A DNA stretch of 64,000 nt from an uncultured Rhizobiaceae bacterium (GTDB taxonomy: Bacteria; Pseudomonadota; Alphaproteobacteria; Rhizobiales; Rhizobiaceae), in NCBI GenBank assembly GCA_951813045.1, contig CATOTF010000002.1, positions 62,001 to 126,000 of the forward strand, read 5' to 3'. How positions within the stretch are numbered: position 1 is the stretch's first letter; every line of letters starts with the position of its first letter. Shown here piece by piece: positions 21,415-40,508 of this stretch. Under the pieces are notes generated by a model, which saw only the letters and a list, made by a program, of their open reading frames with translations, was not told the DNA's origin and did no database searches. Position numbers and translations under genes: made by a program.

Positions 21415-21474
21415 AACGCCTCCCACCTGTTTGGGGTTTTATTCAATGCACCGATGGCACAAATTCTGTGTGGT

Positions 21475-24510: not shown

Positions 24511-25141
24511 GCTGTCCATTAGGAAGATAGGCCGGGAGAAAACGAGGCTGTGATGGCCGGGCGTAACTGACGGTCGGTGCAGGCGAGGTGCGCCGGTATT
24601 ATTAATGCGAAGAGACCTGGTTTCCATTCCGGATTTACTGGACAACTCGTAAACAGGGGTATTTGAGGGCTATTTATTTAAAAACACCAGCAAACTTTGA
24701 ACGTGCTTCGCGGACAATCGCACTACATCACTTAATGTACATCATTACCCTAAATGGTTGATCTTGGTGAATGTCCAGTTTTGTAATTTGGACTGCGCAC
24801 GAACGAAATCGAGCCAAAGAGTGGCTCCCTCAATTTACTTGCTCGAAGCCTGTCGCACCTAATACATTGAGTATCGGTACTCCAAGATACTTCGTACCTA
24901 ACGGGGGCTTTGGCTCGCCACTAATCCAGCATTTTTGGATTTTTGAAAGATTAAAGATAACTCTCTTTCAAAAATTTCCTGCTTAGGATCTTATCCTTTT
25001 CTGCAACCTCGCCTTCCTCGGTAATCACCACCTTTTTTTCCACAGCGCGTGATCGCTACTTGACATATTAGGTGTTTAGAATGTGGTATACCACGGAAGC
25101 TCGAACCATTCGAGTCACCTGTTGTTTGTGGGAGGTCATTT
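24511..25141. other. Non-coding gap with hairpin, then promoter of the oxalate operon
   Basis: No credible gene in 630 bp. ATTTTTGAAAG at 24939-24949 and CTTTCAAAAAT at 24965-24975 form an 11-bp perfect stem with 15-nt loop, which may end transcription from the glutaredoxin side. The last 85 bp carry the promoter and operator described next. A 71-codon frame at 24771-24986 has no ribosome-binding site or recognisable similarity and is not called. Confidence 0.5.
25060..25094 (+). promoter_or_regulatory. Promoter and GntR operator of the oxalate operon
   Basis: TTGACA at 25060-25065 matches a sigma-70 -35 box. A perfect 12-bp palindrome, GTGGTATACCAC, at 25083-25094 overlaps the expected -10 position. 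TGGTATACCA-type sequences are typical targets of FadR-subfamily GntR regulators, and the GntR gene starts 48 bp downstream, so autoregulation is likely. Confidence 0.72.
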
Positions 25142-25855
25142 GTGTCGATTGCTGGAAAGCTTTCACCAATTGCTGTAAATTTTACGCTGAAGGATCATAC
25201 TTATGATCTGCTGAAAGCCGCAATTCTCGATATGAATATCTATGAAGACGGGGCCGACCTGCGCCTTGATGAGCGGTCGATGGCTGAGCAATTGGGCATT
25301 TCCCGGACGCCAATACGGGAAGCTCTTGCGCGGCTGGCGCAGGATGGTCTTGTTGAAATTCTGCCCCGCAGAGGGGTATTTGTTCTTCGTAAATCGCTGG
25401 AAGAAGTGCTGGAGATGGTTGTCACATGGGCGGCGCTGGAAAGCATGGCGGCGCGACTGGCAGCGGAAATGGCGAGCGATGATGATCTAAAGGCGCTGCG
25501 TAAATTTGCCATGAAACACAGCGCCGATGTCGCCCGCGCCGATATTGAGGAATATTCGGAAGCCAATATTCAATTCCATCAAAAGATCCTCGAATTATCA
25601 CGATGCAGCCTGTTGAAAACAACGGCTGACGGGCTGTTCCAGCATATGCATGCCATTCGCCGCCGGGCGATGGGGGAGAGTGACCGGGCAACCCGTTCAG
25701 TGGTTGATCACATGCACATTATTGAATCACTGGAAGCGCGGGATGCTGATCTCGCAAGCCGTCTTGTGCGCGAGCACACCATGAAATTGCACGACCATAT
25801 CCAGCAAAGCTGGCTGGGTTTTGAAAACGAAGAAAAACAAGTGCAGTCGTCTTGA
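25142..25855 (+). CDS. GntR/FadR-family regulator of the oxalate operon
   Basis: A 237-residue regulator with an N-terminal winged HTH (LDERSMAEQLGISRTPIREA then LARLAQDGLVEILPRRGVFV) and a C-terminal FCD ligand domain whose metal/ligand residues lie in the helices around FHQKILELSR and HMHIIESLEARD. FCD regulators usually bind a small carboxylate. As first gene of the oxalate operon it is expected to answer to oxalate, oxalyl-CoA or formate (inference). It starts with GTG behind GGGAGG. Confidence 0.9.
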   Translation: MSIAGKLSPIAVNFTLKDHTYDLLKAAILDMNIYEDGADLRLDERSMAEQLGISRTPIREALARLAQDGLVEILPRRGVFVLRKSLEEVLEMVVTWAALESMAARLAAEMASDDDLKALRKFAMKHSADVARADIEEYSEANIQFHQKILELSRCSLLKTTADGLFQHMHAIRRRAMGESDRATRSVVDHMHIIESLEARDADLASRLVREHTMKLHDHIQQSWLGFENEEKQVQSS

Positions 25856-25876
25856 TTGCTGAAAACGGAAGATAAT

Positions 25877-27640
25877 ATGACTGAAGCGCCTACACCTGCC
25901 GGGGATTTGACCGACGGATTTCACCTCCTGATTGACGCGTTGAAGCTCAATGGGGTTGAAACGATTTACGGGGTTCCGGGCATTCCGATTACTGACCTTG
26001 GCCGTATGATGCAGGAAGAGGGACTGCGTGTCTTGTCCTTCCGCCACGAGCAAAATGCTGGCAATGCTGCGGCAATCGCGGGGTTTTTGACCAAAAAACC
26101 GGGCATATGCCTGACGGTTTCCGCTCCAGGTTTTTTGAATGGTCTTACGTCACTTGCCCATGCCACCACGAATTGCTGGCCGATGATCCTGATTTCCGGA
26201 TCGTCAGAACGAGAGGTCGTTGACCTCATGCAGGGCGATTATGAGGAGATGGACCAATTGGCCATTGCCAAGCCGCTCTGCAAGGCAGCCTATCGGGTGC
26301 TGCACGCGCAAGATATCGGCATCGCTATTGCCCGTGCGGTTAGGGCGGCGGTGTCGGGTCGGCCAGGTGGCGTCTATCTCGACGTACCTGGTGCGCTTTT
26401 AGGGCAGGTTATGGATGCAGTTAAAGGGGCGAAATCACTGGTTAAGGTAATTGACCCGGCCCCGGCACAAATTCCGTCGCCAGCTTCAGTTGATCGGGCA
26501 TTGGATGTTATCAAAGGTGCGAAAAAACCACTCATCATTCTCGGTAAAGGCGCGGCTTATGCGCAGGCAGATGACGTTGTTAAAGACTTCGTTGAAAAGA
26601 GCGGCATACCCTATCTGCCGATGAGCATGGCGAAAGGGCTTTTACCTGACGGGCACGAGCAATCAGCAGGGCCGGCGCGGTCTCTTGTACTCAAGGAATC
26701 TGACGTTGTGATCATGGTCGGCGCGCGCTTGAACTGGTTGTTGTCCCACGGGAAAGGCAAGCAATGGGGTGAAGCCCATTCCACCAGGTTTGTGCAGATC
26801 GATATTGAACCGAAGGAAATGGATTCTAATGTTGAAATCGTTGCGCCGGTAGTCGGTGATATTGAATCGAGCCTGAGCGCATTAACTGCGGGCATGGGCA
26901 ACGGCTGGAGCGGCCCACCCAAAGAATGGACGGATGCGGTCAAAGAAAAGAAAGACGCCAATATCGCAAGAATGGCGCCGACCTTGCAGAACAATGCGTC
27001 TCCGATGAATTATGCGGGCGCGCTTGGGGCGATCAAACGGGTTATCGATAAAAACCCCGATACTATGTTCGTCAACGAGGGTGCGAACACGTTGGATTTT
27101 GCCCGCTCGATGGTTGATATGCACAAGCCGCGCAAGCGCCTTGATGTGGGCACATGGGGCGTTATGGGCGTTGGTATGGGAACAGCGATTGCAGCCGCAG
27201 TTGAAACCGGATTGCCGGTCCTCGCTGTGGAAGGGGATAGCGCATTCGGTTTCTCCGGCATGGAGATTGAAACAATCTGCCGTTACAAATTACCGGTCTG
27301 TGTTGTGGTGTTCAACAACAACGGCATTTACCGGGGAACAGATGAAAACCGCTCCGCCGGTGATGACCCTGCACCGACGGTCTTCGTGCAGGACGCCCGT
27401 TACGACATGATGATGCAGGCGTTTGGCGGTGTCGGAATACATGCAGATAACCCCGACGCTCTGCAACGGGCGGTGAGCGATGCCATCGCTTCGGGCAAGC
27501 CCACTTTGATCAATGCCGTTATCGACCCGAAGGCGGGCAAGGAAAGCGGCAATATCGGCAATCTCAATCCATCCAGTGCAGTCACCGGCGAGAAAAGTGC
27601 CGCCGCGCTTGAAATTTTAAAACAAAAGGCATCACAATGA
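25877..27640 (+). CDS. oxc: Oxalyl-CoA decarboxylase
   Basis: ThDP and Mg-dependent enzyme that decarboxylates oxalyl-CoA to formyl-CoA. Start taken at 25877 (MTEAPTP, 587 aa) with GGAAG upstream; the open frame extends 7 codons more. The cofactor-activating Glu is E58 in [21 protein letters not shown] provides the Tyr-Glu pair seen at the active site of characterised Oxc, the ThDP motif is [15 protein letters not shown] with FNNNGIYRG, and [13 protein letters not shown] is characteristic of Oxc rather than acetolactate synthase. The C-terminal lid region reads [10 protein letters not shown]. 2-Hydroxyacyl-CoA lyase is the main alternative, disfavoured by the adjacent frc. The stop overlaps the next start (ATGA). 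Confidence 0.93.
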
Positions 27641-28911
27641 AGGCTCTTGAAGGCGTCAAAGTCCTCGATTTCACCCACGTTCAATCCGGCCCGACCTGTA
27701 CTCAATTGCTGGGTTGGTTTGGGGCCGACGTCATCAAGGTCGAACGCCCCGGCGTCGGTGATGCGACGCGCAAACAGCTTGTCGATGTGCCCGGCGCGGA
27801 CTCGCTTTATTTCACCATGTTGAATCACAACAAGCGTTCAATTGAACTGAACTCGAAAAACGAGACCGGTAAGGAAGTTCTCACCCGGTTGATCGAGGAA
27901 TGCGATGTTCTGGTGGAGAATTTTGCCCCCGGCGCGCTCGACCGTATGGGCTTCTCTTGGGAGCGTATTCAGGAGATCAACCCGCGCATCATCATGGCGT
28001 CCATCAAGGGCTTTGGACCGGGTAAATATGAGGACTGTAAAGTCTACGAGAACGTTGCTCAGTGCGCGGGCGGGTCCGCGTCCACCACAGGTTTTCGCGA
28101 TGGACCTCCTTTGGTAACCGGTGCGCAGATTGGTGATTCCGGAACCGGTCTGCATCTCTGTCTTGGCATTGTAACCGCGCTTTTTCAGCGCGAAAAATCC
28201 GGGCGTGGTCAAAAAGTATCCTGCGCCATGCAGGACAGCGTGTTGAATCTTGCACGGGTGAAACTCCGGGACCAACAACGGCTGGATGCGGGTCCGCTCC
28301 AGGAGTATTCCCAGTTTGGTGAGGGCGTCCCCTTTGGCGAAGCGACACCACGGGCAGGTAATGATTCAGGCGGCGGCCAACCGGGGCGGATTTTGAAATG
28401 TAAAGGCTGGGAACAGGATCCCAACGCCTATACCTATTTTATCATTCAGGCCGCGATCTGGGAAAAAGTCTGCGATGTGATCAACAAGCCTGAATGGAAA
28501 ACCCAGGAAGGTTATGCCAAACCGCCGCAACGTCTCGACAAGCTCAACGAGATTTTTGAGACCATCGAACAATGGACGATGACCAAGACGAAGTTCGAGG
28601 TCATGGATATCTGTAACCCGCACGACATTCCGGTTGGCCCGATACTTTCCATGAAAGAGATCGCCGAAGACGAAGGGCTTTTTGCAACCGGCACTATGGT
28701 CCGGGTCGACCATCCGGAGCGCGGCGAATATCTCAGCGTCGGCTGCCCGATCAAACTGTCCGACAGTGAGGCGGAAGTAACGCGCTCGCCATTGCTGGGT
28801 GAACATACGCAGGAAATTCTATCGGATGTTTTGGGTTATTCCGGTGATGAGCTGGATCGGATTATCGGGTCCGGTGCTGTGGGTGAAGTTACCCGAGATG
28901 CTGCAGAGTAA
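27637..28911 (+). CDS. frc: Formyl-CoA:oxalate CoA-transferase
   Basis: Class III CoA-transferase that moves CoA from formyl-CoA to oxalate, yielding oxalyl-CoA for Oxc and releasing formate. The 424-residue length matches Frc (about 428). The catalytic Asp is D167 in [13 protein letters not shown]. The glycine loop that closes over the active site, SGGGQPG, and the N-terminal [20 protein letters not shown] are both present. These loops separate Frc from other CaiB-type enzymes. It overlaps oxc by 4 bp, giving tight translational coupling of the two enzymes of the cycle. Confidence 0.94.
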
Positions 28912-28922
28912 GGGGTAGGGTG

Positions 28923-29840
28923 ATGCGTATAATTGTCATGGGACAACAGGCATTCGGCAAGGATGTTCTAACCAAACTGCTGGATGCAGGGACCGATGAG
29001 GTTGTCGCGGTATATTGCGAACCTGACCGGGAAGGCAGGCCGGCTGACCCGATAAAAGAATTCGCTTTGGAAAAAGACATTCCGGTTCTTCAGCCTGCGA
29101 AGTTTGATGATGAGGCTGTTCTCAATGAAATGGCCGGATTTAATGCTGACCTGATGATCATGGCATTCGTCAATATATTTGTACCGGAGGGTGCGCGTGA
29201 CACACCAAAGCTCGGCTCGATCTGTTTCCACCCGTCATTGTTGCCGCTCCACCGTGGTCCGTCAGCCGTTAGCTGGCCCATCATTATGGGAGCAACGAAG
29301 TCCGGCTACTCGTGGTTCTATCCAAGTGATGGCCTCGATGAAGGCGATAGCCTGCTGCAATGGGAATGCGATATTGACCCTGACGATACGGTGATCAATT
29401 TGTACTTCAAAAAGATCTATCCATCCGCTGTGGATTCCGTGCTCGAGGTTTGTGAACTGTTCCGGTCGGGCAATCCGCCACGCATTGTTCCCGATGAAAA
29501 ACTGGCGACATATGAACGGCGCTGCACCAAAAAACACGCCCATGTGGATTGGTTCAAGCCTGTGGGTCAGATCTACAACTTGATCCGCGGCACCAATCCG
29601 GCCCCCGGTGCTTGGACTACTCATAATGGTGCTGAACTTAGTATCTACGATAGTGCGCGGGTAGCAGGCGATGGTGTCGCCGGACGTGTTGTGGAGATTT
29701 CAAATGATGGTGTGACGGTTCAAAGCGTTGGTGGAAGGATTTTGGTGAAGCGCGTCAAACCGGCTGGTGGAGATAAACAATCTGCTTCGGACTGGGCCGC
29801 ATCAGCGGGCATCACCGTTGGCGATACGTTGGGAAGTTAA
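28923..29840 (+). CDS. Formyltransferase / 10-formyl-THF hydrolase-like protein
   Basis: A 305-residue protein with the two-domain layout of methionyl-tRNA formyltransferase: N-terminal formyl_trans_N (about 1-180) and C-terminal OB-like domain (about 200-285). The catalytic His and Asp are present as H103 in CFHPSLLPLHRGPSAVSW and D139 in PSDGLDEGD. The usual Asn before the His (N-I-H-P in Fmt) is Cys here. The SICFHPSLLP and SDGLDEGDSLLQ patterns are closer to the hydrolase domain of 10-formyl-THF dehydrogenase than to Fmt. Its place in the oxalate operon suggests that it moves the formyl group between formyl-CoA-derived formate or formyl-CoA and tetrahydrofolate. ATG 28923 preferred over GTG 28920. 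Confidence 0.72.
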   Translation: MRIIVMGQQAFGKDVLTKLLDAGTDEVVAVYCEPDREGRPADPIKEFALEKDIPVLQPAKFDDEAVLNEMAGFNADLMIMAFVNIFVPEGARDTPKLGSICFHPSLLPLHRGPSAVSWPIIMGATKSGYSWFYPSDGLDEGDSLLQWECDIDPDDTVINLYFKKIYPSAVDSVLEVCELFRSGNPPRIVPDEKLATYERRCTKKHAHVDWFKPVGQIYNLIRGTNPAPGAWTTHNGAELSIYDSARVAGDGVAGRVVEISNDGVTVQSVGGRILVKRVKPAGGDKQSASDWAASAGITVGDTLGS

Positions 29841-29844
29841 CGCC

Positions 29845-29970
29845 ATGAAGCTAAAGACAGACATCGGGGTTGTGCGGGAGGTCTGTATGAGTCGGCCCCC
29901 TATGCGCGCGCGCTGTCTATCTGGGGGTGGCGAGTTCATCAAGACGTTGTTTCCGGGAGTGAAGGGATGA
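29845..29970 (+). CDS. Possible 41-residue small ORF
   Basis: An ATG 4 bp after the formyltransferase-like stop opens a 41-codon frame (MKLKTDIGVVREVC... PGVKG) that ends in TGA overlapping the start of the UspA gene (ATGA). This tight packing on both sides favours real translation or at least translational coupling. The sequence has two Cys and no recognisable family. It may simply be a spacer frame. Confidence 0.35.
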   Translation: MKLKTDIGVVREVCMSRPPMRARCLSGGGEFIKTLFPGVKG

Positions 29971-30821
29971 TCCGCAAACTCCTCGTACCAGTTCGTGGCG
30001 ATGGGAAAGGGGACAACGTCCTTGCCCATGCAGCAGGATTGGCCGCGCGGTTTAAAGCCCATGTAACCATCACCCATTGTCGGGCACGGCCAGAGGATAT
30101 GATCCCCTATGGTGTCCCGATTCCCGCGTTCTTAAAAACGCAAATTCAAGAGCAGGCAACACAGATTGCAGATCTTGAAGAAAAAGGCTTGCAAGAAGAA
30201 CTTAAGGTTCTGGCCGCTTCACTCAATCTGGACATGGCGAATGGCCCATCAAAGAATGCCGCAACTGCGTCGTGGATAGAAGAAGAAGGCCGTCAGGTTG
30301 ATGTGATCAAACGGCACGGCCGGTTGGCCGATCTTATCTGTGTTGCAAAACCCGATGTCGATCGCAACCTTGGGACCAACACATTAAAGGCGGCATTGTT
30401 TAATACCGGTCGCCCGGTGATGATGTGCCCTGAAGCCACGGAAGACCTATCGGGTCTCGGGTCCCAAGTGGCGATTGCCTGGAATGGATCTACCGAAGCA
30501 GCTCGTGCGGTCGCGCTCACATTGGGGCTGATTGAGGCGGCTGATAATGTCACCATTCTAACGTCCGGTTCAGAGGTTCACGGGGCGAGCACCGCTGACC
30601 TCGTTACCTATCTCAACTTGCGGGATGTGAACGCAGATATCTTGAGATTTGATGCGAAGAAGAAAGTTGGACAGAAATTGCTGGAACGCAGCAAGGCTTG
30701 TGGTGCTGACTTAATGATTATGGGTGCTTATGGCGACAGTCATGAGAAAGAAGTAATTTTTGGCGGCAATACGCAATATATTGTCGACAACGGAGATATG
30801 CCGGTGGTCCTGGTGCATTGA
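29967..30821 (+). CDS. Tandem universal stress protein (UspA family)
   Basis: A 284-residue protein with two Usp domains. The first (about 1-135) starts MIRKLLVPVRGDGKGDNVL and is divergent; the second (about 155-284) contains VAIAWNGSTEAARAV and the ATP-binding-type G-x2-G-x9-G pattern in MGAYGDSHEKEVIFGGNTQY followed by DMPVVLVH. Ribosome-binding site GGGAGTGAAGG. Usp proteins are common companions of TTT and TRAP transporters. A role in sensing energy or acid stress during oxalate growth is only inference. Confidence 0.88.
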   Translation: MIRKLLVPVRGDGKGDNVLAHAAGLAARFKAHVTITHCRARPEDMIPYGVPIPAFLKTQIQEQATQIADLEEKGLQEELKVLAASLNLDMANGPSKNAATASWIEEEGRQVDVIKRHGRLADLICVAKPDVDRNLGTNTLKAALFNTGRPVMMCPEATEDLSGLGSQVAIAWNGSTEAARAVALTLGLIEAADNVTILTSGSEVHGASTADLVTYLNLRDVNADILRFDAKKKVGQKLLERSKACGADLMIMGAYGDSHEKEVIFGGNTQYIVDNGDMPVVLVH

Positions 30822-30880
30822 GGAGTGCGTATGGAATCCCGGCAACAAAGAGTGAAGGAATAACCGGGAAATCGGTTTGT

Positions 30881-30900
30881 AATGCGACGCGTGACGCATT
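30881..30900. promoter_or_regulatory. 20-bp inverted repeat upstream of tctC
   Basis: AATGCG-ACGCGTGA-CGCATT, 6-bp arms with a partly palindromic centre (ACGCGT), 40 bp before the solute-receptor start. The 118-bp usp-tctC gap is the widest in the operon, so an internal promoter or processing site here is plausible. Confidence 0.4.
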
Positions 30901-30939
30901 CACGCACACTAACGACAACAGTATCTGTTGGGAGGAAGT

Positions 30940-31911
30940 ATGACTATCACAAAGAGATTATTCATAAGCATGGTTGGTGCAACTGCTCTGGCCACAACCA
31001 CCTTTGCCGGAATTGCCCAGGCTTGGGATCCAAAAAAACCAATCGACTTTGTTATCATGGCAGGCGCAGGAGGTGGGGCTGACCAAATCGCCCGTTTCAT
31101 CCAGTCGGTTGCTGAGAAGAAAGACATGACGACACGTCCGTTGGTTCCAAACAACAAGGGCGGTGGTTCCGGTGCAGAAGCACTGATTGCATTGAAGGGC
31201 GCCAGTGACCCTGATCACACAATTTTGGTGACGTTGAATTCGTTTTTCGCAACACCACTTCGCCAACCAAATCTCGGGATCGATATCAAGACCTTCACAC
31301 CTGTGGCGATGATGGGCGTCGACCCGTTTGTTCTTTGGGTACACAAAGACAGTGGCATCACCACATTTGAAAAATGGCTGGAGACGGTTAAGGCCGCAAA
31401 TGGCGAATACGTCATGGGTGGAACTGGTAAAGGCCAGGAAGACAGCACGGTTGTTGCCTGGATGGAAGGAAACTACGGCGTTAAGATCAAGTACATTCCC
31501 TATGATGGTGGTGGTGCTGTTGCCAAGGATTTAGCAGGACAGCAGATAATGGCTTCGGTCAACAACCCTGCAGAAGCCAAAGGTTTCTACGAATCAGGTG
31601 ATGTTGTTCCACTGATTGCTTTTTCCGACGAGCGTCTGGCAGCTTATCCTGATGTCCGCACAGTCAAAGAACTGGGTAAAGACTTCAGCTACTACAATCA
31701 GCGCGCAGTCGTTGGTGCCCCTGGCATGTCAGATGAAGCCGCAGCCTATTATCAGAACCTCTTCAAGACAATTTACGACACCGAAGAGTGGCAAGCTTAC
31801 ATGAAGTCTGAAAGCCTGTCTCCACTATGGTTGGATGCCGGTGCGCAGCGCGCCTATTGGCAAACACAGGTGCAAAACCACAAAGAACTATTTGCCGCAA
31901 TGGACAAATAG
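30940..31911 (+). CDS. tctC: TTT solute-binding protein, TctC family
   Basis: Periplasmic receptor of a tripartite tricarboxylate transporter, 323 residues. The start at 30940 has GGAGGAAG directly upstream. Signal peptide residues 1-27 end in GIAQAW. The mature part shows the TctC/Bug fold pattern: FVIMAGAGGGADQIARF, then VPNNKGGGSGAEALI, GVDPFVLWVHKDSGI, YIPYDGGGAVAKDLAGQQIM and AAYPDVRTVKELG. Bug proteins bind carboxylates through main-chain and water contacts; oxalate is the inferred ligand because of the operon. No lipobox is present. Confidence 0.9.
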   Translation: MTITKRLFISMVGATALATTTFAGIAQAWDPKKPIDFVIMAGAGGGADQIARFIQSVAEKKDMTTRPLVPNNKGGGSGAEALIALKGASDPDHTILVTLNSFFATPLRQPNLGIDIKTFTPVAMMGVDPFVLWVHKDSGITTFEKWLETVKAANGEYVMGGTGKGQEDSTVVAWMEGNYGVKIKYIPYDGGGAVAKDLAGQQIMASVNNPAEAKGFYESGDVVPLIAFSDERLAAYPDVRTVKELGKDFSYYNQRAVVGAPGMSDEAAAYYQNLFKTIYDTEEWQAYMKSESLSPLWLDAGAQRAYWQTQVQNHKELFAAMDK

Positions 31912-31956
31912 AACCGACAAAAACATTTGACTATTGCGTATGTAAAGGGGGCCAGA

Positions 31957-32460
31957 ATGCGGCTGGGAGAAATTGTTACAGCGGGTATTTTGGCCCTTTT
32001 TTCCATCTTTCTAATGGTGGAAAGCGCAAAACTGGATGTTGGTTATATCACTGGAGAAGGACCGGGCGGAGGTGCCTGGCCCTTCTGGCTTTCGGCAATT
32101 ATGTTGATTTGTACCGGATTTATTGCGTACAACTGGTACCGGAAAACTTCACCACCATCGCAATCGAGCGAGCCTGTGCTCGACAGCTATGGGATGAAGA
32201 GCTTTTTATATGTGGCTGGTGGGTTATTGGGGTTCATCGCACTGATTGACATCATCTCGATGTATGGGGCGATGGCGGTCTTTCTTGTCTATTACGTGAG
32301 ATTTCTTGGCCGCCATTCATGGCTGCTGACGCTGATATTGGCTATTGCCTTGCCGATCGCGTTTTTCTTCTTTTTTGAAGGGCTTATGCGGATCACGATG
32401 CCAAAAGGGCTCGAATTCACCGAGCCGTTCTACAATATTCTTTACGATATTATCTACTGA
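31957..32460 (+). CDS. tctB: TTT small membrane subunit, TctB family
   Basis: A 167-residue membrane protein with four hydrophobic segments (about 6-25, 38-58, 81-101, 115-150). The start ATG at 31957 follows AAAGGGGG; the open frame upstream starts with TTG and is not needed. GEGPGGGAWPFWLS is the conserved TctB motif between helices 1 and 2. It forms the integral membrane complex with TctA. The second half contains a Phe-rich helix (FFFFF). It is spaced 45 bp after tctC. Confidence 0.88.
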   Translation: MRLGEIVTAGILALFSIFLMVESAKLDVGYITGEGPGGGAWPFWLSAIMLICTGFIAYNWYRKTSPPSQSSEPVLDSYGMKSFLYVAGGLLGFIALIDIISMYGAMAVFLVYYVRFLGRHSWLLTLILAIALPIAFFFFFEGLMRITMPKGLEFTEPFYNILYDIIY

Positions 32461-32506
32461 ACATGCTGCTTGTGCCAGCGCCTCTGGCTGAGAACAGGAA
32501 AGACTA

Positions 32507-34027
32507 ATGGAAATACTTGGACTTCTTGCAGATGGAATGGCGTTATCACTGCAGCCCTTGAACATTGGGTTGATTTTGATTGGCGTTACATTGGGCCTGT
32601 TTATTGGAGCGATGCCGGGGCTTGGGTCCGTAAATGGTGTAGCGATTCTCCTGCCCGTCACATTTCTTGTGCCACCTGGTTCAGCCATTATTTTTCTTGC
32701 CGCGATTTACTACGGGGCGATGTATGGAGGGGCTATAAGTTCAATTACGCTGGGTATTCCTGGGGCGTCCACAGCGGTTGCAACGACGTTTGACGGTAGA
32801 CCGCTGGCACTGAAAGGCCGCGCCAGACTGGCGTTGGTGACAGCAGCAATAGCGTCTTTCGTCGGTGGCTCGGTGGCAAATGTCCTGTTCACATTATTCG
32901 CGCCACTGCTGGCAGCCGTTGCGCTCAGCTTCGGTCCGCCCGAAATTTTTGCGTTGATGCTGCTCGCTTTTGCAACATTCGTTGGGTTGGGTGGCGACGA
33001 TATTCCAAAGACCGTATTTTCCATCTGTATTGGTCTGGTGTTTGCCGCGGTGGGGTTCGATCAAATCTCGGGTGCACCACGGCTTGTGTTCTTTGAAATT
33101 AGCGGTTTTCTGCACGGCATCAATTTTCTTGTGCTCGCAATCGGGGTTTACGGCATTGGCGAAATGCTTTGGACCTTGGATACGACCCGAGGAAAAATCA
33201 TTTCATCTGAAGCAAAAATGACGGTTAAAGGGATCGTTGAAGATTCAAAAGAAGGCATGCGCCGGGGGTGGAAAGGCACGGCAATCGGCTCGGTGCTTGG
33301 ATTTTTCGTCGGGATCTTGCCTGCGGCCGGTGCAACACCCGGTTCGTTGATGTCATATGGCGTTGCCAAAATGGTTGCCAAAAAACCCAAGGAGTTTGGC
33401 GAAGGACACCCAGGTGGTGTCGCGGCACCGGAAGCTGCGAACAATTCTGCCTCCACCGGGGCAATGCTACCCATGCTGACACTAGGTATCCCTGGTTCAC
33501 CTACCACTGCGATCTTGCTTGGCGGGATGGTGATTTGGGGCTTGACACCGGGCCCAAGGCTGTTCGTGGACCAGAGCGAATTTGTATGGGGGCTGATTGG
33601 CTCGTTTTATGTGTCGAATTTCTTCGCGCTTGCCATCAATTTGGCCTTCATCCCACTATTCATCTGGATGCTGCGCATGCCGTTTACAATCCTGGCCCCT
33701 CTGATCTTCGTACTGTCAGTGGTTGGTGGATTTGCAGCGACAAAGGATATGCATGATGTTTGGTTGATGCTCGGCTTCGGCATAGGCGCATTTTTCCTGC
33801 GCAAGTTTGACTACCCCCTAGCACCAGCGGTTCTTGCCATCGTTCTGGGACCGATTGCTGAACCAACACTGCGGCAGTCCCTGCTGCTTTCATCAGGTGA
33901 TGTATCGATCTTCTTTACACGACCGATTGCGGGGCCGATTACAGTCATCGCGTTGATACTGATCCTCCTTCCGTTGTTAAAAGTCATTCGCGACAGGATG
34001 CGGGAGAAAAAGGTTCAAGCGGGTTGA
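32507..34027 (+). CDS. tctA: TTT large membrane subunit, TctA family
   Basis: A 506-residue transporter with about 11-12 membrane helices. The two signature repeats are visible: GLFIGAMPGLGSVNGVAILL near the N-terminus and GFFVGILPAAGATPGSLMSY in the middle, each with the G-x3-G-x2-P-G-like core. AANNSASTGAMLPMLTLGIP and SPTTAILLGG are further TctA marks. It energises uptake with an ion gradient. As partner of the TctC receptor above it is inferred to import oxalate, a route different from the OxlT antiporter. Confidence 0.92.
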   Translation: MEILGLLADGMALSLQPLNIGLILIGVTLGLFIGAMPGLGSVNGVAILLPVTFLVPPGSAIIFLAAIYYGAMYGGAISSITLGIPGASTAVATTFDGRPLALKGRARLALVTAAIASFVGGSVANVLFTLFAPLLAAVALSFGPPEIFALMLLAFATFVGLGGDDIPKTVFSICIGLVFAAVGFDQISGAPRLVFFEISGFLHGINFLVLAIGVYGIGEMLWTLDTTRGKIISSEAKMTVKGIVEDSKEGMRRGWKGTAIGSVLGFFVGILPAAGATPGSLMSYGVAKMVAKKPKEFGEGHPGGVAAPEAANNSASTGAMLPMLTLGIPGSPTTAILLGGMVIWGLTPGPRLFVDQSEFVWGLIGSFYVSNFFALAINLAFIPLFIWMLRMPFTILAPLIFVLSVVGGFAATKDMHDVWLMLGFGIGAFFLRKFDYPLAPAVLAIVLGPIAEPTLRQSLLLSSGDVSIFFTRPIAGPITVIALILILLPLLKVIRDRMREKKVQAG

Positions 34028-34031
34028 GCGG

Positions 34032-35837
34032 GTGACACCAACTCCCGATGATGGAAATCAGGTCAAGATTGAATATGGACCCTGGAACCCGGGTATAAAT
34101 TCAAGCATTCCGCAGGATATCCTGCCATTTTCCACCATGTTTCGGGCAGAAAATGTCGAAACGGGGTTTGATGAAGCCCATGAACTTGCGGACTTTAGCG
34201 GGCTTTCGCCTTTTGACGTTGTTGCATTCCGCACCGAGCGTCTCGTCGTGCATGAGCTTTTAATTCGTGTGACCGCTGATCTATCGGTTCCTGATGGGCC
34301 GGAATATGAAGAACTCGGCATCAATATGCGCGGCATGACGCGGCGTATATTTGACCACTATGTTTTGCCAAGATTGAATGAGCTAAATGATGATCTTAGT
34401 GAATTGCGTGGCACGGCTCGGGTTTTCATCGGAAATGAATTGCGGCAGTTTTTGTACCCGAAAATGAAGGTTAGTATCGAACCGGCTCCTAAACCAACAT
34501 TGTTTCAGCGAATATTTGGCAAAGGTAAAAATGGCAATGTGAATACACCCGATAAGAACGAGTCGGAAGCGGACAGGCTTGCAGACCTTGAAAGACGAAT
34601 TCCCGCTAGCAGCGACGAATTGGAGATGGCATCAATGCAGGCGTTGCTGGATGTGTTGCGCTCGGTGATTGGTCATCGTGGACGTCTGATTGGGGACGAC
34701 GACATATTCGCTGACCTTGCAGTTAATATCGTCAGCAATAACCTGGGTAGCAAAAGATTGGGGGACGCGATTTCCCCGATCATTGCGGAGGCAGCGAAAG
34801 AGGAGAGCTATCGGTTTCTCTCGTCGCAGGAAAAACCAGTCATTATGAACGTTAAAGGAGCGTCTGCATCAGGCAAGAGCACCATCCGCCCTGAGCAGCG
34901 GAAACTTGCGGAAAGGCTTGATATCCCATGGAAGGATTTTGCGCTGATCAGCCCCGATTATTGGCGCAAATATCTTCTCGATTATGAGTCCCTTGGGAAT
35001 GACCATAAATATGGCGCGATGCTGACCGGGCATGAGTTGGAAATTGTCGATAAAAAGCTGGACCGCTATATGGCTGAAAAAGCCGGTGCTGGGACCATGC
35101 CTCACCTGTTGATCGACCGGTTCCGGTTCGACAGTTTTACAATCGAAGACGATCACGACGAGGGTAGCAAATTGCTCACCCGGTTTGGTGATACGGTCTT
35201 CATGTTTTTCATGATTACGCCGCCGCAAGAAACGGTTGAACGGGCCTGGAAGCGCGGCCTGACGACTGGGCGTTACAAAGCGGTGGAAGATCTTCTCGAC
35301 CACAACATTGAAGCTTATACCGGCATGCCATCGCTGTTTTTCTCTTGGGCGCTTTCCAAAAAGAAACGAGTCCATTTTGAGTTTCTCGATAACAGCGTTG
35401 CCCTGAACCAACGCCCGAAAACTGTGGCATTTGGCTGGAATGATTCGATGACCATTCTTGATATTCAAAAGTTGCTGGATATCGAGAGGTATAAGAAAGT
35501 CGATGTGGAAGCCACTTCACCGGACGATGTTTTTGACGATGCAGAATTGGATGCGCGGAAGAACACTGTATTTCTAACGCAGTGTGTTATCCGTATGCGC
35601 CGGGTGGAATTTGCCGATCAAAAGACCGGTAGAATTTATGGATGTATGGAGAATGGTACGTGGATGTGGCGCGACCGGGCCTATGTTCGCGATAATATAA
35701 CCGAAGCTGATGTTCTCATGGGGCTAAATATATTGAGTTGGAATGAGAGACCTGAAAGCGATGATGAAGACCCAGCGCCGCGTTTTGTTGACCGCGACAG
35801 AATTCGGACACTGGGGAATTGGTGCCACATTCGCTAA
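34032..35837 (+). CDS. Large P-loop (zeta-toxin-like kinase fold) protein, unknown role
   Basis: A 601-residue soluble protein starting at GTG 4 bp after tctA. A Walker A motif, GASASGKS, lies at 276-283 after the strand PVIMNVK, and a region resembling the zeta-toxin/AAA_33 kinase fold follows (SPDYWRKYLLDY with acidic and Arg residues, then LLIDRFRFDSF and FMFFMITPPQETVERAWKRG, a lid-like segment). The 270-residue N-terminal half and the C-terminal 130 residues are not recognised. No partner antitoxin is present, and the gene ends the oxalate operon. A phosphotransferase acting on a small molecule or a regulatory ATPase is possible; I cannot assign a substrate. Confidence 0.65.
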   Translation: MTPTPDDGNQVKIEYGPWNPGINSSIPQDILPFSTMFRAENVETGFDEAHELADFSGLSPFDVVAFRTERLVVHELLIRVTADLSVPDGPEYEELGINMRGMTRRIFDHYVLPRLNELNDDLSELRGTARVFIGNELRQFLYPKMKVSIEPAPKPTLFQRIFGKGKNGNVNTPDKNESEADRLADLERRIPASSDELEMASMQALLDVLRSVIGHRGRLIGDDDIFADLAVNIVSNNLGSKRLGDAISPIIAEAAKEESYRFLSSQEKPVIMNVKGASASGKSTIRPEQRKLAERLDIPWKDFALISPDYWRKYLLDYESLGNDHKYGAMLTGHELEIVDKKLDRYMAEKAGAGTMPHLLIDRFRFDSFTIEDDHDEGSKLLTRFGDTVFMFFMITPPQETVERAWKRGLTTGRYKAVEDLLDHNIEAYTGMPSLFFSWALSKKKRVHFEFLDNSVALNQRPKTVAFGWNDSMTILDIQKLLDIERYKKVDVEATSPDDVFDDAELDARKNTVFLTQCVIRMRRVEFADQKTGRIYGCMENGTWMWRDRAYVRDNITEADVLMGLNILSWNERPESDDEDPAPRFVDRDRIRTLGNWCHIR

Positions 35838-35849: not shown

Positions 35850-38231
35850 TCAGCCCCCCGATGTTGCCGTTACAGGTTGCGGCTCTCCCGCACCACCGCC
35901 GGAGCTTTTAAAGTAATGCAGCACCATCACTGCGACTGCGACCAGCAATGCCACTCCGTGTATGAGGGGGTCAGAGAACATGATGAGCGAGGCTAATCCC
36001 AGCCTTGATAGTACTTCCCAAGGGGCAAGCTTTGCGCGGTCGAAACGGGCCAATCCGCTTGCCAGCAGATAGAGTGCAAGCCCAAGCCGCAACAGCAGCC
36101 AGGTGAGTGCGCCAAGGTGCAATTGCCCGTCGTAGCCGGGCAAATATTTTGAAGCTGACGGTAGAGCTGTCGGGTCAATGACCGCCGCTTCGATGAGCAG
36201 AACTTCCGGGTACATCGCAAAGACGAACGGGATCACAAACATCACGATGCCGGACCGCACGGCGGAAAAGCCCGTCGCCATAGGTTCAGCTTTGGTGATG
36301 GTTGCCGCCGCGAAGGCGGCGATAGCCACTGGCGGGGTTATCGCGGACGCCACCGCAAAATAGAAAATGAACATGTGGGCGGTGAAGATCGACAGGCCGA
36401 GGCCCGCCAGAACCGGCCCCATGAGCAGTGCGACATTAATGTATGCGGGAACTGCTGGCATGCCCATTCCGAGCAGGACCGCGAGCGCCATTGTGGTGAG
36501 CAGAGCAACGAACTGGAAGAGGCTCGACCCGCTTCCCCCAAGGTCTAGCGACCGCAACCAACCCAGCACATCAATGGCGACGAAGTCTGAAAGGCCGGTG
36601 AGTTTGAGGCAAAAGTCGATGATCGAAACGGCGAGAAACATCAAATAAAGCGTCGAAATCAGCACCCCAGAATCCGATAAGGCGTCGAGTATTTTTCTCG
36701 GTCTGGCGCGTACGTCCGGATCGAGGAACAGCAGGAATATCAGCAGAACGACAGCCCACCAGCCTGCACTACCTGCATCACCGGCTGAATTTTGTAGTAA
36801 TTCGAAAAACCACGGCAGGTTTTGGGCGGTGCAACCGTTTGCATCAATTGTGGTCTGGACACCGAATATGGCTCCAAAAATGCCACAGCCAACGGCCTCT
36901 TTCGGGGTGAGCAGAAGAAACAGAATCAACAGGATCGGTCCAAAAATCATGATCAGATTGACGATGTCACGTCGCGACATAATCATGTCTTCGGTCTTTG
37001 CCCCTATCGCCTCAATGCCCTGTTTACGGGACTGGAATACGGCCGATAAAAACAGGCAGAGGAAATAGGCAAGTGCCGGAATGGTCGCCGCGATAATAAC
37101 CTCGCGGTAAGGTACCGCGGTAAGCGCGGCCAGAACGAACGCGGCAACACCCATGACGGGTGGCATGATCGACCCTCCGGACGAGGCCGCAGCTTCCATG
37201 CCCCCGGCGAAGGTTTTGGAAAAGCCGCGTTTGATCATCATGGGAATGGTCAAGACGCCGGTTGAAAGGACATTGACCACCGGTCCGCCGGAAATTGTGC
37301 CGAACATGGCCGATGAAATGATCGCCGCATGGGCCGGGCCACCGCGCAGTTTACGAGTCCACAGAAAGGCCAGTTTGATCAGAGATTTACCCCCGGCGGA
37401 AGCGCCAAACAGACCGCCCAGTACGATATAGGGGAATACGGTGTTCAGAATAATATCCAGAAAACGACCCAACAGACCGGATGAATTGTTGATCAGGGCG
37501 TCGTGAAGGCGCGGACGCCCATCGCTCAACAGGCGCGGTTCACCACCCAGTTTCGTGATCAGATATTTGTTGATGTCGTCGGCACCGTAGAAATACCACA
37601 CGAGCGCTGTAATGATTGTGTAGGCAGTGATCGCGATGGCAACCAGCACCAGGGGCAGACCCCAGACTTTCACGTTGTAGGACAGGAATATGATAACCGC
37701 GATGCCGATGATCGCGACGAGCCAGCCGCCGGTTGTGTTGATGCATTGCGGGTCTTCCACACTGTCGGGCACCGGAAGTCCGTAAAGCTCGGCAAACTCC
37801 TGTTCTTCCAGAAGGCTTTTGGCGATCAGTTCCGCCCGTTCCCCGGTCATTTGGTCGATGACGCAAACAGCTTCAATTTCCACCAGATAGGTTATGGAAA
37901 TTCCCACTGCGGCGATGACCAGCGCGAGGTCAAGCAGAAGTCCCATTCGGCGTTTGCCCGGCGAATGGTTCGCGAAATCGCGCCAAAGGGAATGTTTGAG
38001 CGCGACGATGATCATCATCACCGCGAAGACGAGCGGATAGAAATATTCGTAAGGGTATTTGCGGAGCGTGAAATCCCGCCAACCGGAAAGCTCAGTCGCT
38101 GCGTTGTCTAGTCCGGGTATGCCGGGCATGGAATTCAACAGGCCGACAATCACCAGCGCCAGCGCTAGCCAATAGACGATCTTCAGGCCCGGATCAGACC
38201 TGCTGTTGGAAAATGTGCCCTCGTCAGACAT
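35850..38231 (-). CDS. TRAP transporter permease, fused 4TM/12TM (DctQM) type
   Basis: A 793-residue membrane protein in which the small DctQ-like and large DctM-like TRAP subunits are fused, the form that works with TAXI receptors. The N-terminal part has about five helices up to about 230. The DctM-like part starts near 260 with FPYIVLGGLFGASAGGKSLI and contains GGPVVNVLSTGVLTIPMM with SSGGSIMPPVMGVAAFV, the ion- and substrate-binding glycine-rich hairpins, and LGMGMPAVPAYINVALLMGP in the second half. It takes up a carboxylate with sodium. Its start lies 81 bp after the TAXI receptor stop, with a strong hairpin between them. Confidence 0.92.
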   Translation of the reverse strand: MSDEGTFSNSRSDPGLKIVYWLALALVIVGLLNSMPGIPGLDNAATELSGWRDFTLRKYPYEYFYPLVFAVMMIIVALKHSLWRDFANHSPGKRRMGLLLDLALVIAAVGISITYLVEIEAVCVIDQMTGERAELIAKSLLEEQEFAELYGLPVPDSVEDPQCINTTGGWLVAIIGIAVIIFLSYNVKVWGLPLVLVAIAITAYTIITALVWYFYGADDINKYLITKLGGEPRLLSDGRPRLHDALINNSSGLLGRFLDIILNTVFPYIVLGGLFGASAGGKSLIKLAFLWTRKLRGGPAHAAIISSAMFGTISGGPVVNVLSTGVLTIPMMIKRGFSKTFAGGMEAAASSGGSIMPPVMGVAAFVLAALTAVPYREVIIAATIPALAYFLCLFLSAVFQSRKQGIEAIGAKTEDMIMSRRDIVNLIMIFGPILLILFLLLTPKEAVGCGIFGAIFGVQTTIDANGCTAQNLPWFFELLQNSAGDAGSAGWWAVVLLIFLLFLDPDVRARPRKILDALSDSGVLISTLYLMFLAVSIIDFCLKLTGLSDFVAIDVLGWLRSLDLGGSGSSLFQFVALLTTMALAVLLGMGMPAVPAYINVALLMGPVLAGLGLSIFTAHMFIFYFAVASAITPPVAIAAFAAATITKAEPMATGFSAVRSGIVMFVIPFVFAMYPEVLLIEAAVIDPTALPSASKYLPGYDGQLHLGALTWLLLRLGLALYLLASGLARFDRAKLAPWEVLSRLGLASLIMFSDPLIHGVALLVAVAVMVLHYFKSSGGGAGEPQPVTATSGG

Positions 38232-38254
38232 GAGATTTCAGCCACCCTGATATA

Positions 38255-38283
38255 AATCAGCCGACCACGGGGATCGGCTGATT
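38255..38283 (-). terminator. Intercistronic hairpin between TAXI receptor and TRAP permease
   Basis: AATCAGCCGA and TCGGCTGATT form a perfect 10-bp stem around a 9-nt loop, placed 28 bp after the receptor stop. There is no T tract, so it is more likely an mRNA-stability or partial-attenuation element that lets the receptor be made in excess over the permease. Confidence 0.65.
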
Positions 38284-38311
38284 AGTGTTTATCGGTTGCG
38301 AATTAAGAAGC

Positions 38312-39361
38312 CTATGGCTTTGCGCAATCGTCGATTTTGTAACCAGCCTCTTCCCATGCGGCGACTGCACCGGCGTGGTATTTTAGCGGGTTGGCACCAC
38401 ACATGCCGGACTTTACTGCATCAACAATACCATAGCCAGCGTTCTTGGCGAACGGGGCCTTGGCTTTCAGCTTATCAAGGGTGTCAATGTGAGCCTTGGT
38501 CAGCGCTTTAGCGAGATCGAACGACATGTTTTTATTGACAATATCGCCGCCAATCGTTGCCAGGCCGCGGAATTTTCCGTCTTCCGATTTTACGGTCACA
38601 CCTTCGGGCATGGTCGCTTCGCTAATGGGAATTTCGAAAGGCGCGGAGCCTGGAGCTCTAAGATATTTTTGAAATGAGTCAGATTCAAACTTGTCTTTCG
38701 GGGTCGACCAAACGGTCATTTTTCCCGAAGATACAGCCTGGGTAAGTCGGCCATCTGGAAACAGTACCGGTAGAACAACAGCATCGGCGGAGCCATCTGT
38801 GATTGTCTTGACCGCTTGGCCCCAGTTGACCTGAACCCCCTTATACCCGTCGCCTTCTTTCAGGCCAGCCGTTAGCTGGATTATTGCACGGGCATTGGTG
38901 ACAGCGGCACCGCGGGGAGGGCCGTTGTAAATGGTTTTCCCATTGAGATCACCCCAGCCGTTGAGCCCCTTAGAGTCATATGCGTACAACGTAAATATTC
39001 CCAAAGTGACGGGATAAAGCGCCCGCAGGTTGGCTGCGAGTTCCGCTCCCTTTTCAGCACCCAGCTTCGAATAAGGGCCACGGCCTTTGGCCAGCAGAAA
39101 CGGTAATATATAGGGTGTGCCAGCAACATCGGTCTTGCCTTCGGCAACATTCTGCACCGAATTGGTCAACGTTTGACCAGCGGCCACCTGAATGTTTGCG
39201 ATGTCTTTTTCAGCGGCAACTTCCGCCAGATGAGCCATGGACAAGTGAATTGATCCGCCCGGTGACGCGGTTTCACCGGTCAGATTTTCTGCTGCCTTTG
39301 CAACCGTCGTTGATAGCAGCGCCGCCATACCGACAGCAATTATTGTCTTCATCGATTTCAT
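38312..39361 (-). CDS. TAXI-family TRAP solute receptor
   Basis: Periplasmic substrate receptor of the TAXI-TRAP class, 349 residues from ATG 39361, which has GGGAGGAAATGAC directly upstream; the 24-codon extension is out. Signal peptide residues 1-23 end AKAAE. SPGGSIHLSMAHLAEVAAE near the mature N-terminus and the GDLNGKTIYNGPPRGAAVTN segment match TAXI proteins, as does the C-terminal KYHAGAVAAWEEAGY. It delivers its ligand to the fused permease encoded next. The ligand is unknown; the neighbouring FAH hydrolase suggests a keto- or dicarboxylic acid. Confidence 0.9.
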   Translation of the reverse strand: MKSMKTIIAVGMAALLSTTVAKAAENLTGETASPGGSIHLSMAHLAEVAAEKDIANIQVAAGQTLTNSVQNVAEGKTDVAGTPYILPFLLAKGRGPYSKLGAEKGAELAANLRALYPVTLGIFTLYAYDSKGLNGWGDLNGKTIYNGPPRGAAVTNARAIIQLTAGLKEGDGYKGVQVNWGQAVKTITDGSADAVVLPVLFPDGRLTQAVSSGKMTVWSTPKDKFESDSFQKYLRAPGSAPFEIPISEATMPEGVTVKSEDGKFRGLATIGGDIVNKNMSFDLAKALTKAHIDTLDKLKAKAPFAKNAGYGIVDAVKSGMCGANPLKYHAGAVAAWEEAGYKIDDCAKP

Positions 39362-39463
39362 GTCATTTCCTCCCAAAAACGAGTTTGTTAATTCAGTCTG
39401 GATTCTATTCTCTGTGGCGCGAGTGTTGCACAAATTAATCGTGAATAAAGCCCCCCGGACGAT

Positions 39464-39483
39464 TTAGTTAATAAGTCAACTAA
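39464..39483. promoter_or_regulatory. Inverted repeat between FAH and TAXI genes
   Basis: TTAGTT-AATAAGTC-AACTAA, 6-bp perfect arms, located in the 137-bp gap between the FAH stop and the TAXI start. It may be an operator for a second promoter serving the transporter genes, for example for the nearby GntR protein. Confidence 0.4.
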
Positions 39484-39498
39484 ATGTCATTGATGTGA

Positions 39499-40362: not shown

Positions 40363-40468
40363 GCCATTCTCCAAACGCGTATTGTTATTTTCCAACCCGG
40401 CCGGGCCAGCTTGAGGCGGACCTTATCTGCTGGTGAATTGGCAAACAATCAAAAAACGATATATTCTT

Positions 40469-40486
40469 GATATTTGAAAAAATATC
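40469..40486. promoter_or_regulatory. Candidate GntR operator in the FAH/gntR divergent region
   Basis: GATATT-TGAAAA-AATATC, 6-bp arms, 23 bp before the gntR start and about 107 bp before the FAH start. Position and symmetry suit a site for the adjacent GntR regulator. Confidence 0.45.
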
Positions 40487-40508
40487 TACAAAATTAGGCG
40501 GGAACGAC

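What the first reader, a model, noticed from the sequence alone, without database searches (positions are those of the whole stretch)
25060..35837. Ten-gene oxalate operon with a TTT importer instead of OxlT
Frc and Oxc are diagnostic of oxalate catabolism. They are cotranscribed with a TctC-TctB-TctA transporter, a UspA protein, a formyltransferase-like protein and a P-loop protein. Known oxalate uptake uses the OxlT oxalate/formate antiporter; an ion-driven periplasmic-receptor TTT system would be a different route suited to low concentrations. All genes are intact and tightly spaced (two ATGA overlaps, one 4-bp gap).
Basis: partly seen in the sequence, partly recalled or inferred. Interest (0 to 1): 0.72.

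Follow-up and report, generated by a model that had tools for sequence, protein, structure and literature searches.

The report
Oxalate operon with its own importer
A bacterium carries an oxalate-eating operon that includes a three-part importer with a periplasmic receptor, and comparison across many genomes strongly suggests, but does not yet prove, that this importer brings in oxalate.

Summary
The locus is real, with small errors in its description: nine genes, not ten; one ATGA overlap found, not two; two gaps of over 100 bp. Order: GntR/FCD regulator, oxc, frc, formyltransferase-like gene, usp, tctC, tctB, tctA, P-loop gene. Oxc and Frc pass curated equivalog cut-offs; the genome has no OxlT match. 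That the TTT imports oxalate is well supported by genomics. (1) Of 80 relatives of this TctC, 32 lie with oxc/frc and 19 with a different oxalate pathway, a PanE-like reductase and (18 of 19) an oxalate-CoA ligase. (2) In 292 Rhodobacterales-type genomes, 28 of 30 with this TctC have an oxalate-activating enzyme, against 40 of 262 without it. (3) In 61 oxc genomes of the window's order, this TTT and OxlT nearly exclude each other (OxlT in 2 of 24 versus 28 of 37). (4) The palindrome TGGTATACCA occurs once in the 4.84-Mb genome, at this promoter; in relatives it recurs before oxalate-locus genes, including before tctC where tctCBA is transcribed apart. Substrate binding is untested, and many oxalate-activating genomes lack this TTT. 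The formyltransferase-like protein resembles the hydrolase domain of 10-formyl-THF dehydrogenase and may consume formyl-CoA.

The parts
25060..25065 (+). -35-like box TTGACA; a -10 at normal spacing would lie inside the palindrome
   Evidence: read directly; not among the 8 sigma-70-like sites
25083..25094 (.). palindrome GTGGTATACCAC (core TGGTATACCA 25084-25093), proposed operator of the GntR/FCD regulator
   Evidence: core is the only exact copy in the 4.84-Mb genome; TNGTNNACNA within 250 bp upstream of the gntR homologue in 44 of 66 loci
25142..25855 (+). GntR-family regulator with FCD domain, proposed regulator of the operon
   Evidence: PF07729 1e-23, PF00392 1e-14
25877..27640 (+). oxc, oxalyl-CoA decarboxylase (alternative TTG start 25856)
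   Evidence: TIGR03254 972 bits, cut-off 739
27637..28911 (+). frc, formyl-CoA:oxalate CoA-transferase
   Evidence: TIGR03253 697.5 bits, cut-off 504
28920..29840 (+). formyltransferase-like protein, closest in PDB to the hydrolase domain of 10-formyl-THF dehydrogenase; proposed formyl-CoA:THF formyltransferase
   Evidence: 4qpd 180 bits versus best Met-tRNA formyltransferase 125 bits; H104 and D140 in 61 of 61 homologues
29967..30821 (+). universal-stress-family protein that travels with tctCBA in both pathway contexts
   Evidence: PF00582; in 28 of 32 oxc/frc loci and 18 of 19 oxs/panE loci
30940..31911 (+). tctC, periplasmic receptor, signal-peptide-like N-terminus judged by eye (alternative TTG start 30928)
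   Evidence: PF03401 6.8e-25; model pLDDT 87.9, best PDB matches TctC-family receptors
31957..32460 (+). tctB, small membrane subunit (alternative TTG start 31927)
   Evidence: PF07331 3.3e-15
32507..34027 (+). tctA, large membrane subunit
   Evidence: PF01970 462.5 bits
34032..35837 (+). 601-aa P-loop protein of unknown role; follows the oxc pathway, not the TTT
   Evidence: sub-threshold PF06414; no PDB match at E 0.01; in 21 of 32 oxc/frc loci and 0 of 19 oxs/panE loci

Best explanation
This is an oxalate utilisation operon whose uptake system is a tripartite tricarboxylate transporter dedicated to oxalate. TctC would capture oxalate in the periplasm and TctB/TctA would import it, driven by an ion gradient (inferred from the family). 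Frc would charge oxalate to oxalyl-CoA and Oxc would decarboxylate it to formyl-CoA (established chemistry of those families). The resulting formate or formyl-CoA would be oxidised or passed to tetrahydrofolate. The GntR/FCD protein would act on the palindrome at the promoter (inferred from the conserved site). The same TTT clade serves a second pathway in other bacteria, oxalate-CoA ligase plus a PanE-like (probably oxalyl-CoA) reductase, so the transporter appears to have been kept while the pathway behind it was exchanged. Shown here: gene identity, context, co-occurrence, near-exclusion of OxlT, operator sharing. Inferred: substrate, energy coupling, regulation.
For: Equivalog-level Oxc and Frc. 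Context of 80 TctC relatives (70-88% identity): 32 oxc/frc, 13 with only other parts of that operon, 19 oxs/panE (18 with the ligase, 1 with PanE alone), 16 neither. The ligase matches PDB oxalate-CoA ligases at 410, 397 and 371 bits (a fourth, shorter chain at 263), with malonyl-CoA synthetase next at 209. Of the 16 'neither' genomes, 14 encode that ligase elsewhere, 62-77% identity. In 292 genomes of the order of G305, 28 of 30 TctC carriers versus 40 of 262 others have the ligase or Oxc, p 3e-18 uncorrected for kinship; tctC is within 10 kb of the ligase in 15 of 21 and of oxc in 6 of 7 (coordinates). In 61 oxc genomes of the window's order, OxlT occurs in 2 of 24 with the TTT clade versus 28 of 37 without: p 1.5e-7 by genome, 0.004 by genus, 0.002 by family; in 18 of the 24 tctC is on the same contig within 10 kb of oxc (coordinates). 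TGGTATACCA: 77 copies in 2.48 Mb of loci, 70 within 350 bp before a gene of the oxalate loci; six control palindromes 0-1 copies each. Exact copies lie before tctC in nine loci and before oxlT in L175 and L180. The ten other TctC loci of the window genome have no Oxc, Frc or PanE relative and no operator.
Against: No binding or transport data. In 16 of 80 loci no oxalate gene lies in the fetched flanks, and two of those genomes (L080, about 2.7 Mb; L089) have neither ligase nor Oxc; in the 292-genome sample G381 and G300 (the genome of L089) are the two exceptions. Of 68 genomes there with ligase or Oxc, 40 lack this TctC, so it is not the only route; OxlT was not searched in that sample. Nine of 61 oxc genomes have neither this TTT clade nor OxlT. 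A sister clade of 22 TctC rows (about 32-40% identity) sits beside oxc in several genomes that also have OxlT, so not every TTT near oxc need carry oxalate. 22 of 66 regulator homologues showed no palindrome upstream, and the operator tally was made in loci chosen for these genes. One of the ten control TctC loci (L228) has an AMP-forming ligase at 32% identity to the oxalate ligase. PanE as oxalyl-CoA reductase is recalled; no characterised sequence was compared. Related genomes are not independent counts.
Confidence: 0.85

Rival explanations
1. The TTT imports a precursor of oxalate or a neighbouring C2/C3 acid (oxamate, glyoxylate, tartronate, glycolate) that is turned into oxalate or oxalyl-CoA inside the cell, not oxalate itself.
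For: Isochorismatase-family hydrolase genes lie in 16 of 32 oxc/frc loci. Characterised TTT substrates have two carboxylic groups or groups such as sulfate and amide (PMC5812351, passages).
Against: That hydrolase is in 0 of 19 oxs/panE loci, which keep the same TTT, and is not among the nine genes of the window operon. OxlT, a known oxalate carrier, is the alternative in sister genomes and has the same palindrome upstream in two loci.
Confidence: 0.1
2. The TTT is an unrelated carboxylate importer (for example for citrate or another C4-C6 acid) that happens to be cotranscribed with oxc-frc.
For: TTT systems are abundant: the window genome has 11 TctC matches, and the ligands named in the review passages read are mostly larger acids (PMC5812351).
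Against: Association with two unrelated oxalate pathways in several gene orders, co-occurrence 28 of 30, near-exclusion of OxlT, exact operator copies before tctC. The ten other TctC loci of the genome have no Oxc, Frc or PanE relative; one has a distant (32%) AMP-forming ligase.
Confidence: 0.04
3. The TTT works for export or exchange of oxalate or formate, or TctC is only a sensor.
For: Roles of TctC-type receptors in signalling have been suggested or reported (PMC5812351 passage; a title in the reference list of PMC2864759).
Against: Membrane subunits are kept: TctA in 31 of 32 oxc/frc and 19 of 19 oxs/panE loci. Receptor-dependent secondary transporters are importers (recalled).
Confidence: 0.03

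Closest known systems
Frc + Oxc oxalate pathway with OxlT, as in Oxalobacter formigenes
   Same: Same two enzymes at equivalog level.
   Different: No OxlT match in the genome; a receptor-dependent TTT instead; added formyltransferase-like, Usp, P-loop and GntR genes and a promoter palindrome.
Tripartite tricarboxylate transporters (TctCBA; BugD, BugE, Bug27, AdpC, TphC, MatC receptors)
   Same: TctC, TctB and TctA domains, gene order, receptor fold.
   Different: Distinct clade (99% SH-aLRT, quick tree) with loop [IV]MAGxGGGAD in 113 of 114 rows, where the family motif is P-F-x-A-G-G-x-x-D (PMC5812351 passage). Predicted ligand oxalate; the word does not occur in the held main text of that 2018 review.
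Oxalyl-CoA reductase route of Methylobacterium extorquens (recalled; the paper is not held)
   Same: The second context of this TTT has an oxalate-CoA ligase and a PanE-family reductase.
   Different: The window itself uses Oxc; in the second context oxalate is activated by an AMP-forming ligase.
ALDH1L1 hydrolase domain and HypX N-terminal domain
   Same: The fmt-like protein is closest to the former in PDB. HypX's N-terminal domain moves formyl from 10-formyl-THF to CoA (PMC12134894 passage); ALDH1L1 moves it to a phosphopantetheine arm (recalled).
   Different: A stand-alone protein in an operon where Oxc makes formyl-CoA, so the reaction would run toward folate (inference). Kinship to HypX was not tested.

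Membership tests
Frc/Oxc oxalate pathway with OxlT | Oxc above TIGR03254 cut-off | tested here: met
   972 vs 739 bits
Frc/Oxc oxalate pathway with OxlT | Frc above TIGR03253 cut-off | tested here: met
   697.5 vs 504 bits
Frc/Oxc oxalate pathway with OxlT | OxlT antiporter (TIGR04259) present | tested here: not met
   no match at E 1e-30 in the window genome
Tripartite tricarboxylate transporter | TctC, TctB and TctA domains in one operon | tested here: met
   all three above Pfam gathering score
Tripartite tricarboxylate transporter | TctC-type receptor fold | tested here: met
   model pLDDT 87.9; the 17 best PDB matches are TctC-family receptors, query-normalised TM 0.73-0.83
Tripartite tricarboxylate transporter | loop motif P-F-x-A-G-G-x-x-D of domain 1 | tested here: inconclusive
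   G-G-x-x-D part present; P and F stand as M and A (aligned by eye) in 113 of 114 clade rows
Oxalate importer | binds or transports oxalate | not testable with these tools
   context, co-occurrence and operator evidence only
Oxalate-CoA ligase (AAE3/Pcs60 type), second context | closer to oxalate-CoA ligases than to other acyl-CoA synthetases | tested here: met
   410/397/371 bits vs 209 for malonyl-CoA synthetase; none of the 25 NCBIfam models shown (of 107) is above its cut-off
Oxalyl-CoA reductase (PanE2) | kinship to the M. extorquens enzyme | not tested
   no reference sequence at hand; PanE/ApbA family shown; PanE relatives lie in 10 of 60 oxc loci of the window's order
10-formyl-THF hydrolase/formyltransferase family | catalytic His and Asp of the formyl transfer site (roles recalled) | tested here: met
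   H104 and D140 in 61 of 61 homologues; both align with ALDH1L1 residues

The most novel reading that the evidence does not exclude
The clade is a dedicated oxalate importer of alphaproteobacteria and some Granulosicoccaceae that has been handed between two unrelated oxalate pathways. The fmt-like protein of the operon is the missing enzyme for formyl-CoA, a formyl-CoA:tetrahydrofolate formyltransferase running the ALDH1L1/HypX half-reaction toward folate, so that oxalate carbon enters the C1-folate pool without spending ATP on formate.
Probability: 0.4. Interest if true: 0.78.

Novelty: new variant of a known kind. Interest (0 to 1): 0.64.

Why it matters
How aerobic oxalotrophs take up oxalate is poorly known. 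[quoted passage not shown] A receptor-based importer found by context in many proteobacteria gives a testable uptake gene, a marker for oxalate use in genomes and metagenomes, and a regulon motif. It also names a candidate enzyme for the fate of formyl-CoA.

Tried and rejected
Chance cotranscription of an unrelated TTT: disfavoured by the second pathway context, co-occurrence, operator and own-genome controls. 'Ten genes': nine found. Met-tRNA formyltransferase as identity of the fmt-like gene: TIGR00460 is below its cut-off (133 vs 201.5) and ALDH1L1 scores higher. Zeta toxin as identity of the P-loop protein: below cut-off, no PDB relative at E 0.01. A first ORF caller picked shadow ORFs in GC-rich loci; a second helped, and counts were then taken from tblastn. 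The sigma-70 scan gave no more sites than shuffles (8 vs 10.0); its terminator-like hits (27 vs 12.8) were not followed up. With one mismatch allowed, the palindrome is found before 13 of 107 tctC genes, but two GC-rich control palindromes reach 6 and 7 of 107; exact matches are 8 versus 0 for all eight controls.

Literature (open-licence PMC library only): searches returned nothing. One search returned four papers. I read the matching passages of three: PMC2448597 (only a reference to the TTT family in the held text), PMC2864759 (a general remark that such receptors might bind oxalate among other acids), PMC10838667 (an OxlT-like antiporter and a TTT named apart). The fourth, PMC8230837, was seen in the listing only. 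Of searches I saw the listings, and passages of PMC12927642, PMC5812351, PMC3720670, PMC12134894, PMC10192776 and PMC5924519. A Usp partner protein recalled for a related transporter (TeaD) was sought in PMC5924519 without success.

Limits: the 80 TctC loci are the best 80 of 105 found, so they lean to close relatives. The tree was a quick one with weak inner branches and long outgroup branches. Adjacency counts were made by hand from printed coordinates.
Full report
What is there. On the + strand, 25142-35837 encodes nine genes with open frames: a GntR/FCD regulator, oxc, frc, a formyltransferase-like gene, a Usp-family gene, tctC, tctB, tctA and a 601-aa P-loop gene. Oxc and Frc pass their curated equivalog cut-offs. 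Spacing is tight for oxc/frc (ATGA), frc/fmt (8 bp) and tctA/P-loop (4 bp), with gaps of 126 bp (fmt-usp) and 106 or 118 bp (usp-tctC). A fused TRAP permease gene on the - strand ends 12 bp beyond the last gene. The window lies in a 4.84-Mb genome with 11 TctC matches and one Oxc above cut-off.

Survey of the transporter. A scan with TctC found 105 relatives, of which the best 80 (70-88% identity) were kept. By tblastn with the operon proteins, 32 of 80 lie with oxc and/or frc; 13 carry only other genes of that operon (FTHFS, fmt, P-loop), 12 of these on contigs that end close to tct; 19 lie with a PanE-family reductase, 18 of these also with an AMP-forming CoA ligase; 16 show none of these in the fetched flanks. 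The ligase matches oxalate-CoA ligases of known structure at 410, 397 and 371 bits, and the next kind of enzyme, malonyl-CoA synthetase, at 209. The PanE-family protein is above an NCBIfam 2-dehydropantoate 2-reductase subfamily cut-off (538 vs 223). That a PanE homologue is the oxalyl-CoA reductase of Methylobacterium is recalled; that aerobic methylotrophs reduce oxalyl-CoA to glyoxylate is stated in PMC3720670 (passage). PanE relatives also lie in 10 of 60 oxc loci of the window's order. Oxalate is the only free substrate the two pathways share. In the second context the enzymes occur convergent to tctCBA, downstream in the same direction, and upstream in the same direction, so linkage survives rearrangement.

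The 16 'neither' loci plus L095 and L114 were searched genome-wide: 15 of 18 genomes encode the oxalate-CoA ligase (62-77% identity) and 1 of 18 encodes Oxc. L080 and L089 have neither. For the 16 alone the ligase count is 14.

Co-occurrence. In 292 genomes drawn from the order of G305 (the genome of L104, Roseobacter cerasinus by its record title), 58 have the ligase at E 1e-170, 10 have Oxc and 30 have this TctC at E 1e-100. Of those 30, 21 have the ligase and 7 have Oxc; G381 and G300 have neither. Of the other 262 genomes, 40 have one of the two enzymes, so 40 of 68 carriers of an oxalate-activating enzyme do without this TctC. Fisher p = 3e-18, uncorrected for kinship. By coordinates, tctC is within 10 kb of the ligase in 15 of 21 and of oxc in 6 of 7.

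OxlT as alternative. In the window's order, 61 of 297 genomes have an Oxc match at E 1e-200, 60 of them above the family's cut-off. OxlT (TIGR04259, above cut-off) is in 30 of these 61, not in the window genome. The TctC clade is in 24 of 61 (44% identity or more); in 18 of the 24 it is on the same contig within 10 kb of oxc. Both occur in 2, TctC only in 22, OxlT only in 28, neither in 9: p = 1.5e-7 by genome, 0.004 by genus, 0.002 by family. In 60 oxc loci fetched with up to about 10 kb on each side (the window left out), 29 carry TctA, 24 OxlT, 7 both, 14 neither TTT nor OxlT; some of these contigs are short. The 29 include a more distant TctC clade (about 32-40% identity) that often sits in OxlT-bearing genomes; I do not extend the claim to it.

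Operator. TGGTATACCA starts 58 bp before the regulator's start codon and is the only exact copy in the genome. Within 250 bp upstream of the regulator homologue, TNGTNNACNA occurs in 44 of 66 loci, against 0.056 per 250 bp as background; 22 of 66 have none. In the window and 140 loci (2.48 Mb, chosen for these genes) the exact 10-mer occurs 77 times, 70 of them within 350 bp before a gene of the oxalate loci (regulator, oxc, frc, tctC, oxlT, or the neighbouring sucC, isochorismatase or P-loop genes); six control palindromes occur 0-1 times. Exact copies lie before tctC in nine loci. In L133 tctCBA is on the other strand, and in L127, L134, L147 and L177 it precedes the regulator gene, with the site between tctC and a divergent sucC-like gene; there tctCBA must have its own promoter. 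In L074, L084, L126 and L150 the site is an extra one inside the co-directional row. OxlT has a copy in L175 and L180. The oxs/panE loci lack this regulator (0 of 19), so they must be regulated otherwise.

Tree and receptor. In a quick tree of 148 TctC rows, 114 rows (oxc, oxs, partial and 'neither' contexts) form a group at 99% SH-aLRT, apart from the nine other TctC proteins of the window genome that entered the tree. The main oxs/panE group (41 rows, 98%) is nested among oxc-associated rows, and one further oxs row (L237) branches elsewhere with an oxc row (92%), so the pathway behind the transporter may have been swapped twice (many inner branches are weak). In 113 of 114 rows the ligand loop reads [IV]MAGxGGGAD, where the family motif is P-F-x-A-G-G-x-x-D (PMC5812351 passage). 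The model (pLDDT 87.9) matches TctC-family structures at query-normalised TM 0.73-0.83. The four nearest rows by path are from Litoreibacter, two Paracoccaceae and a 'Rhodobacter' MAG (82-88%), while none of the 12 same-family genomes has Oxc; horizontal gain is a plausible inference, not tested further.

The formyl branch. The formyltransferase-like protein is closer to the hydrolase domain of 10-formyl-THF dehydrogenase (180 bits) than to Met-tRNA formyltransferase (125 bits), with His104 and Asp140 in 61 of 61 homologues. It is in 31 of 32 oxc/frc loci, formate-THF ligase in 22 of 32; in the order's own loci it is less regular (30 of the 56 loci with frc). The window genome has formate-THF ligase elsewhere. 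[quoted passage not shown] I therefore propose that this protein runs formyl-CoA + THF to 10-formyl-THF + CoA, with formyl-CoA hydrolase as the alternative. This is inference.

Literature. Searches joining TTT, TctC or TctA/TctB with oxalate returned no paper making the link (passages of three of the four papers read), apart from a general remark in PMC2864759 that receptors of this family might bind oxalate among other acids. The library holds only open-licence PMC papers, so a statement in a subscription journal would be missed.

Verdict.

Noticed in passing
window 28920-29840: Stand-alone relative of the ALDH1L1 hydrolase domain next to frc; candidate for the missing formyl-CoA-consuming enzyme.
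   Followed up: partly
window 34032-35837: 601-aa P-loop protein with no PDB relative at E 0.01 and only a weak zeta-like match, in 21 of 32 oxc/frc loci and 0 of 19 oxs/panE loci.
   Followed up: partly
L074 4620-6368: The Oxc slot of an otherwise typical operon is filled by a different protein that looks like another thiamine-diphosphate enzyme (25% identity to Oxc), with frc, the fmt-like gene and a PanE gene nearby: a possible natural swap of the central enzyme.
   Followed up: partly
L050 672-2454, L065 144-1052: Divergent SucC/SucD-like CoA ligase and isochorismatase-family hydrolase genes share the palindrome region with many of these operons; role unknown.
   Followed up: partly
L057, L062, L072, L094, L106, L183: Formate dehydrogenase-like (FdhA/NuoF-type) genes near the operon in several relatives, linking it to formate oxidation.
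   Followed up: no
L213 6888-14981: A second frc (712 bits to TIGR03253) with a GntR relative, SucCD-like genes and a distant TTT, on another contig than oxc in that genome.
   Followed up: no
window 35850-41237: Fused TRAP permease, TAXI receptor and FAH-hydrolase genes (- strand) with a divergent GntR/FCD gene: looks like a separate small-acid uptake and breakdown cluster.
   Followed up: partly
window 41300-42715: DDE-type transposase about 5.5 kb downstream of the operon.
   Followed up: no
window 20434-21426: AMP-binding protein of 330 aa that ends at about position 320 of the 384-position Pfam profile, possibly a truncated ligase.
   Followed up: no
window 44955-49002: Intradiol dioxygenase gene with TRAP DctM and DctP genes: looks like an aromatic-acid cluster.
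   Followed up: no
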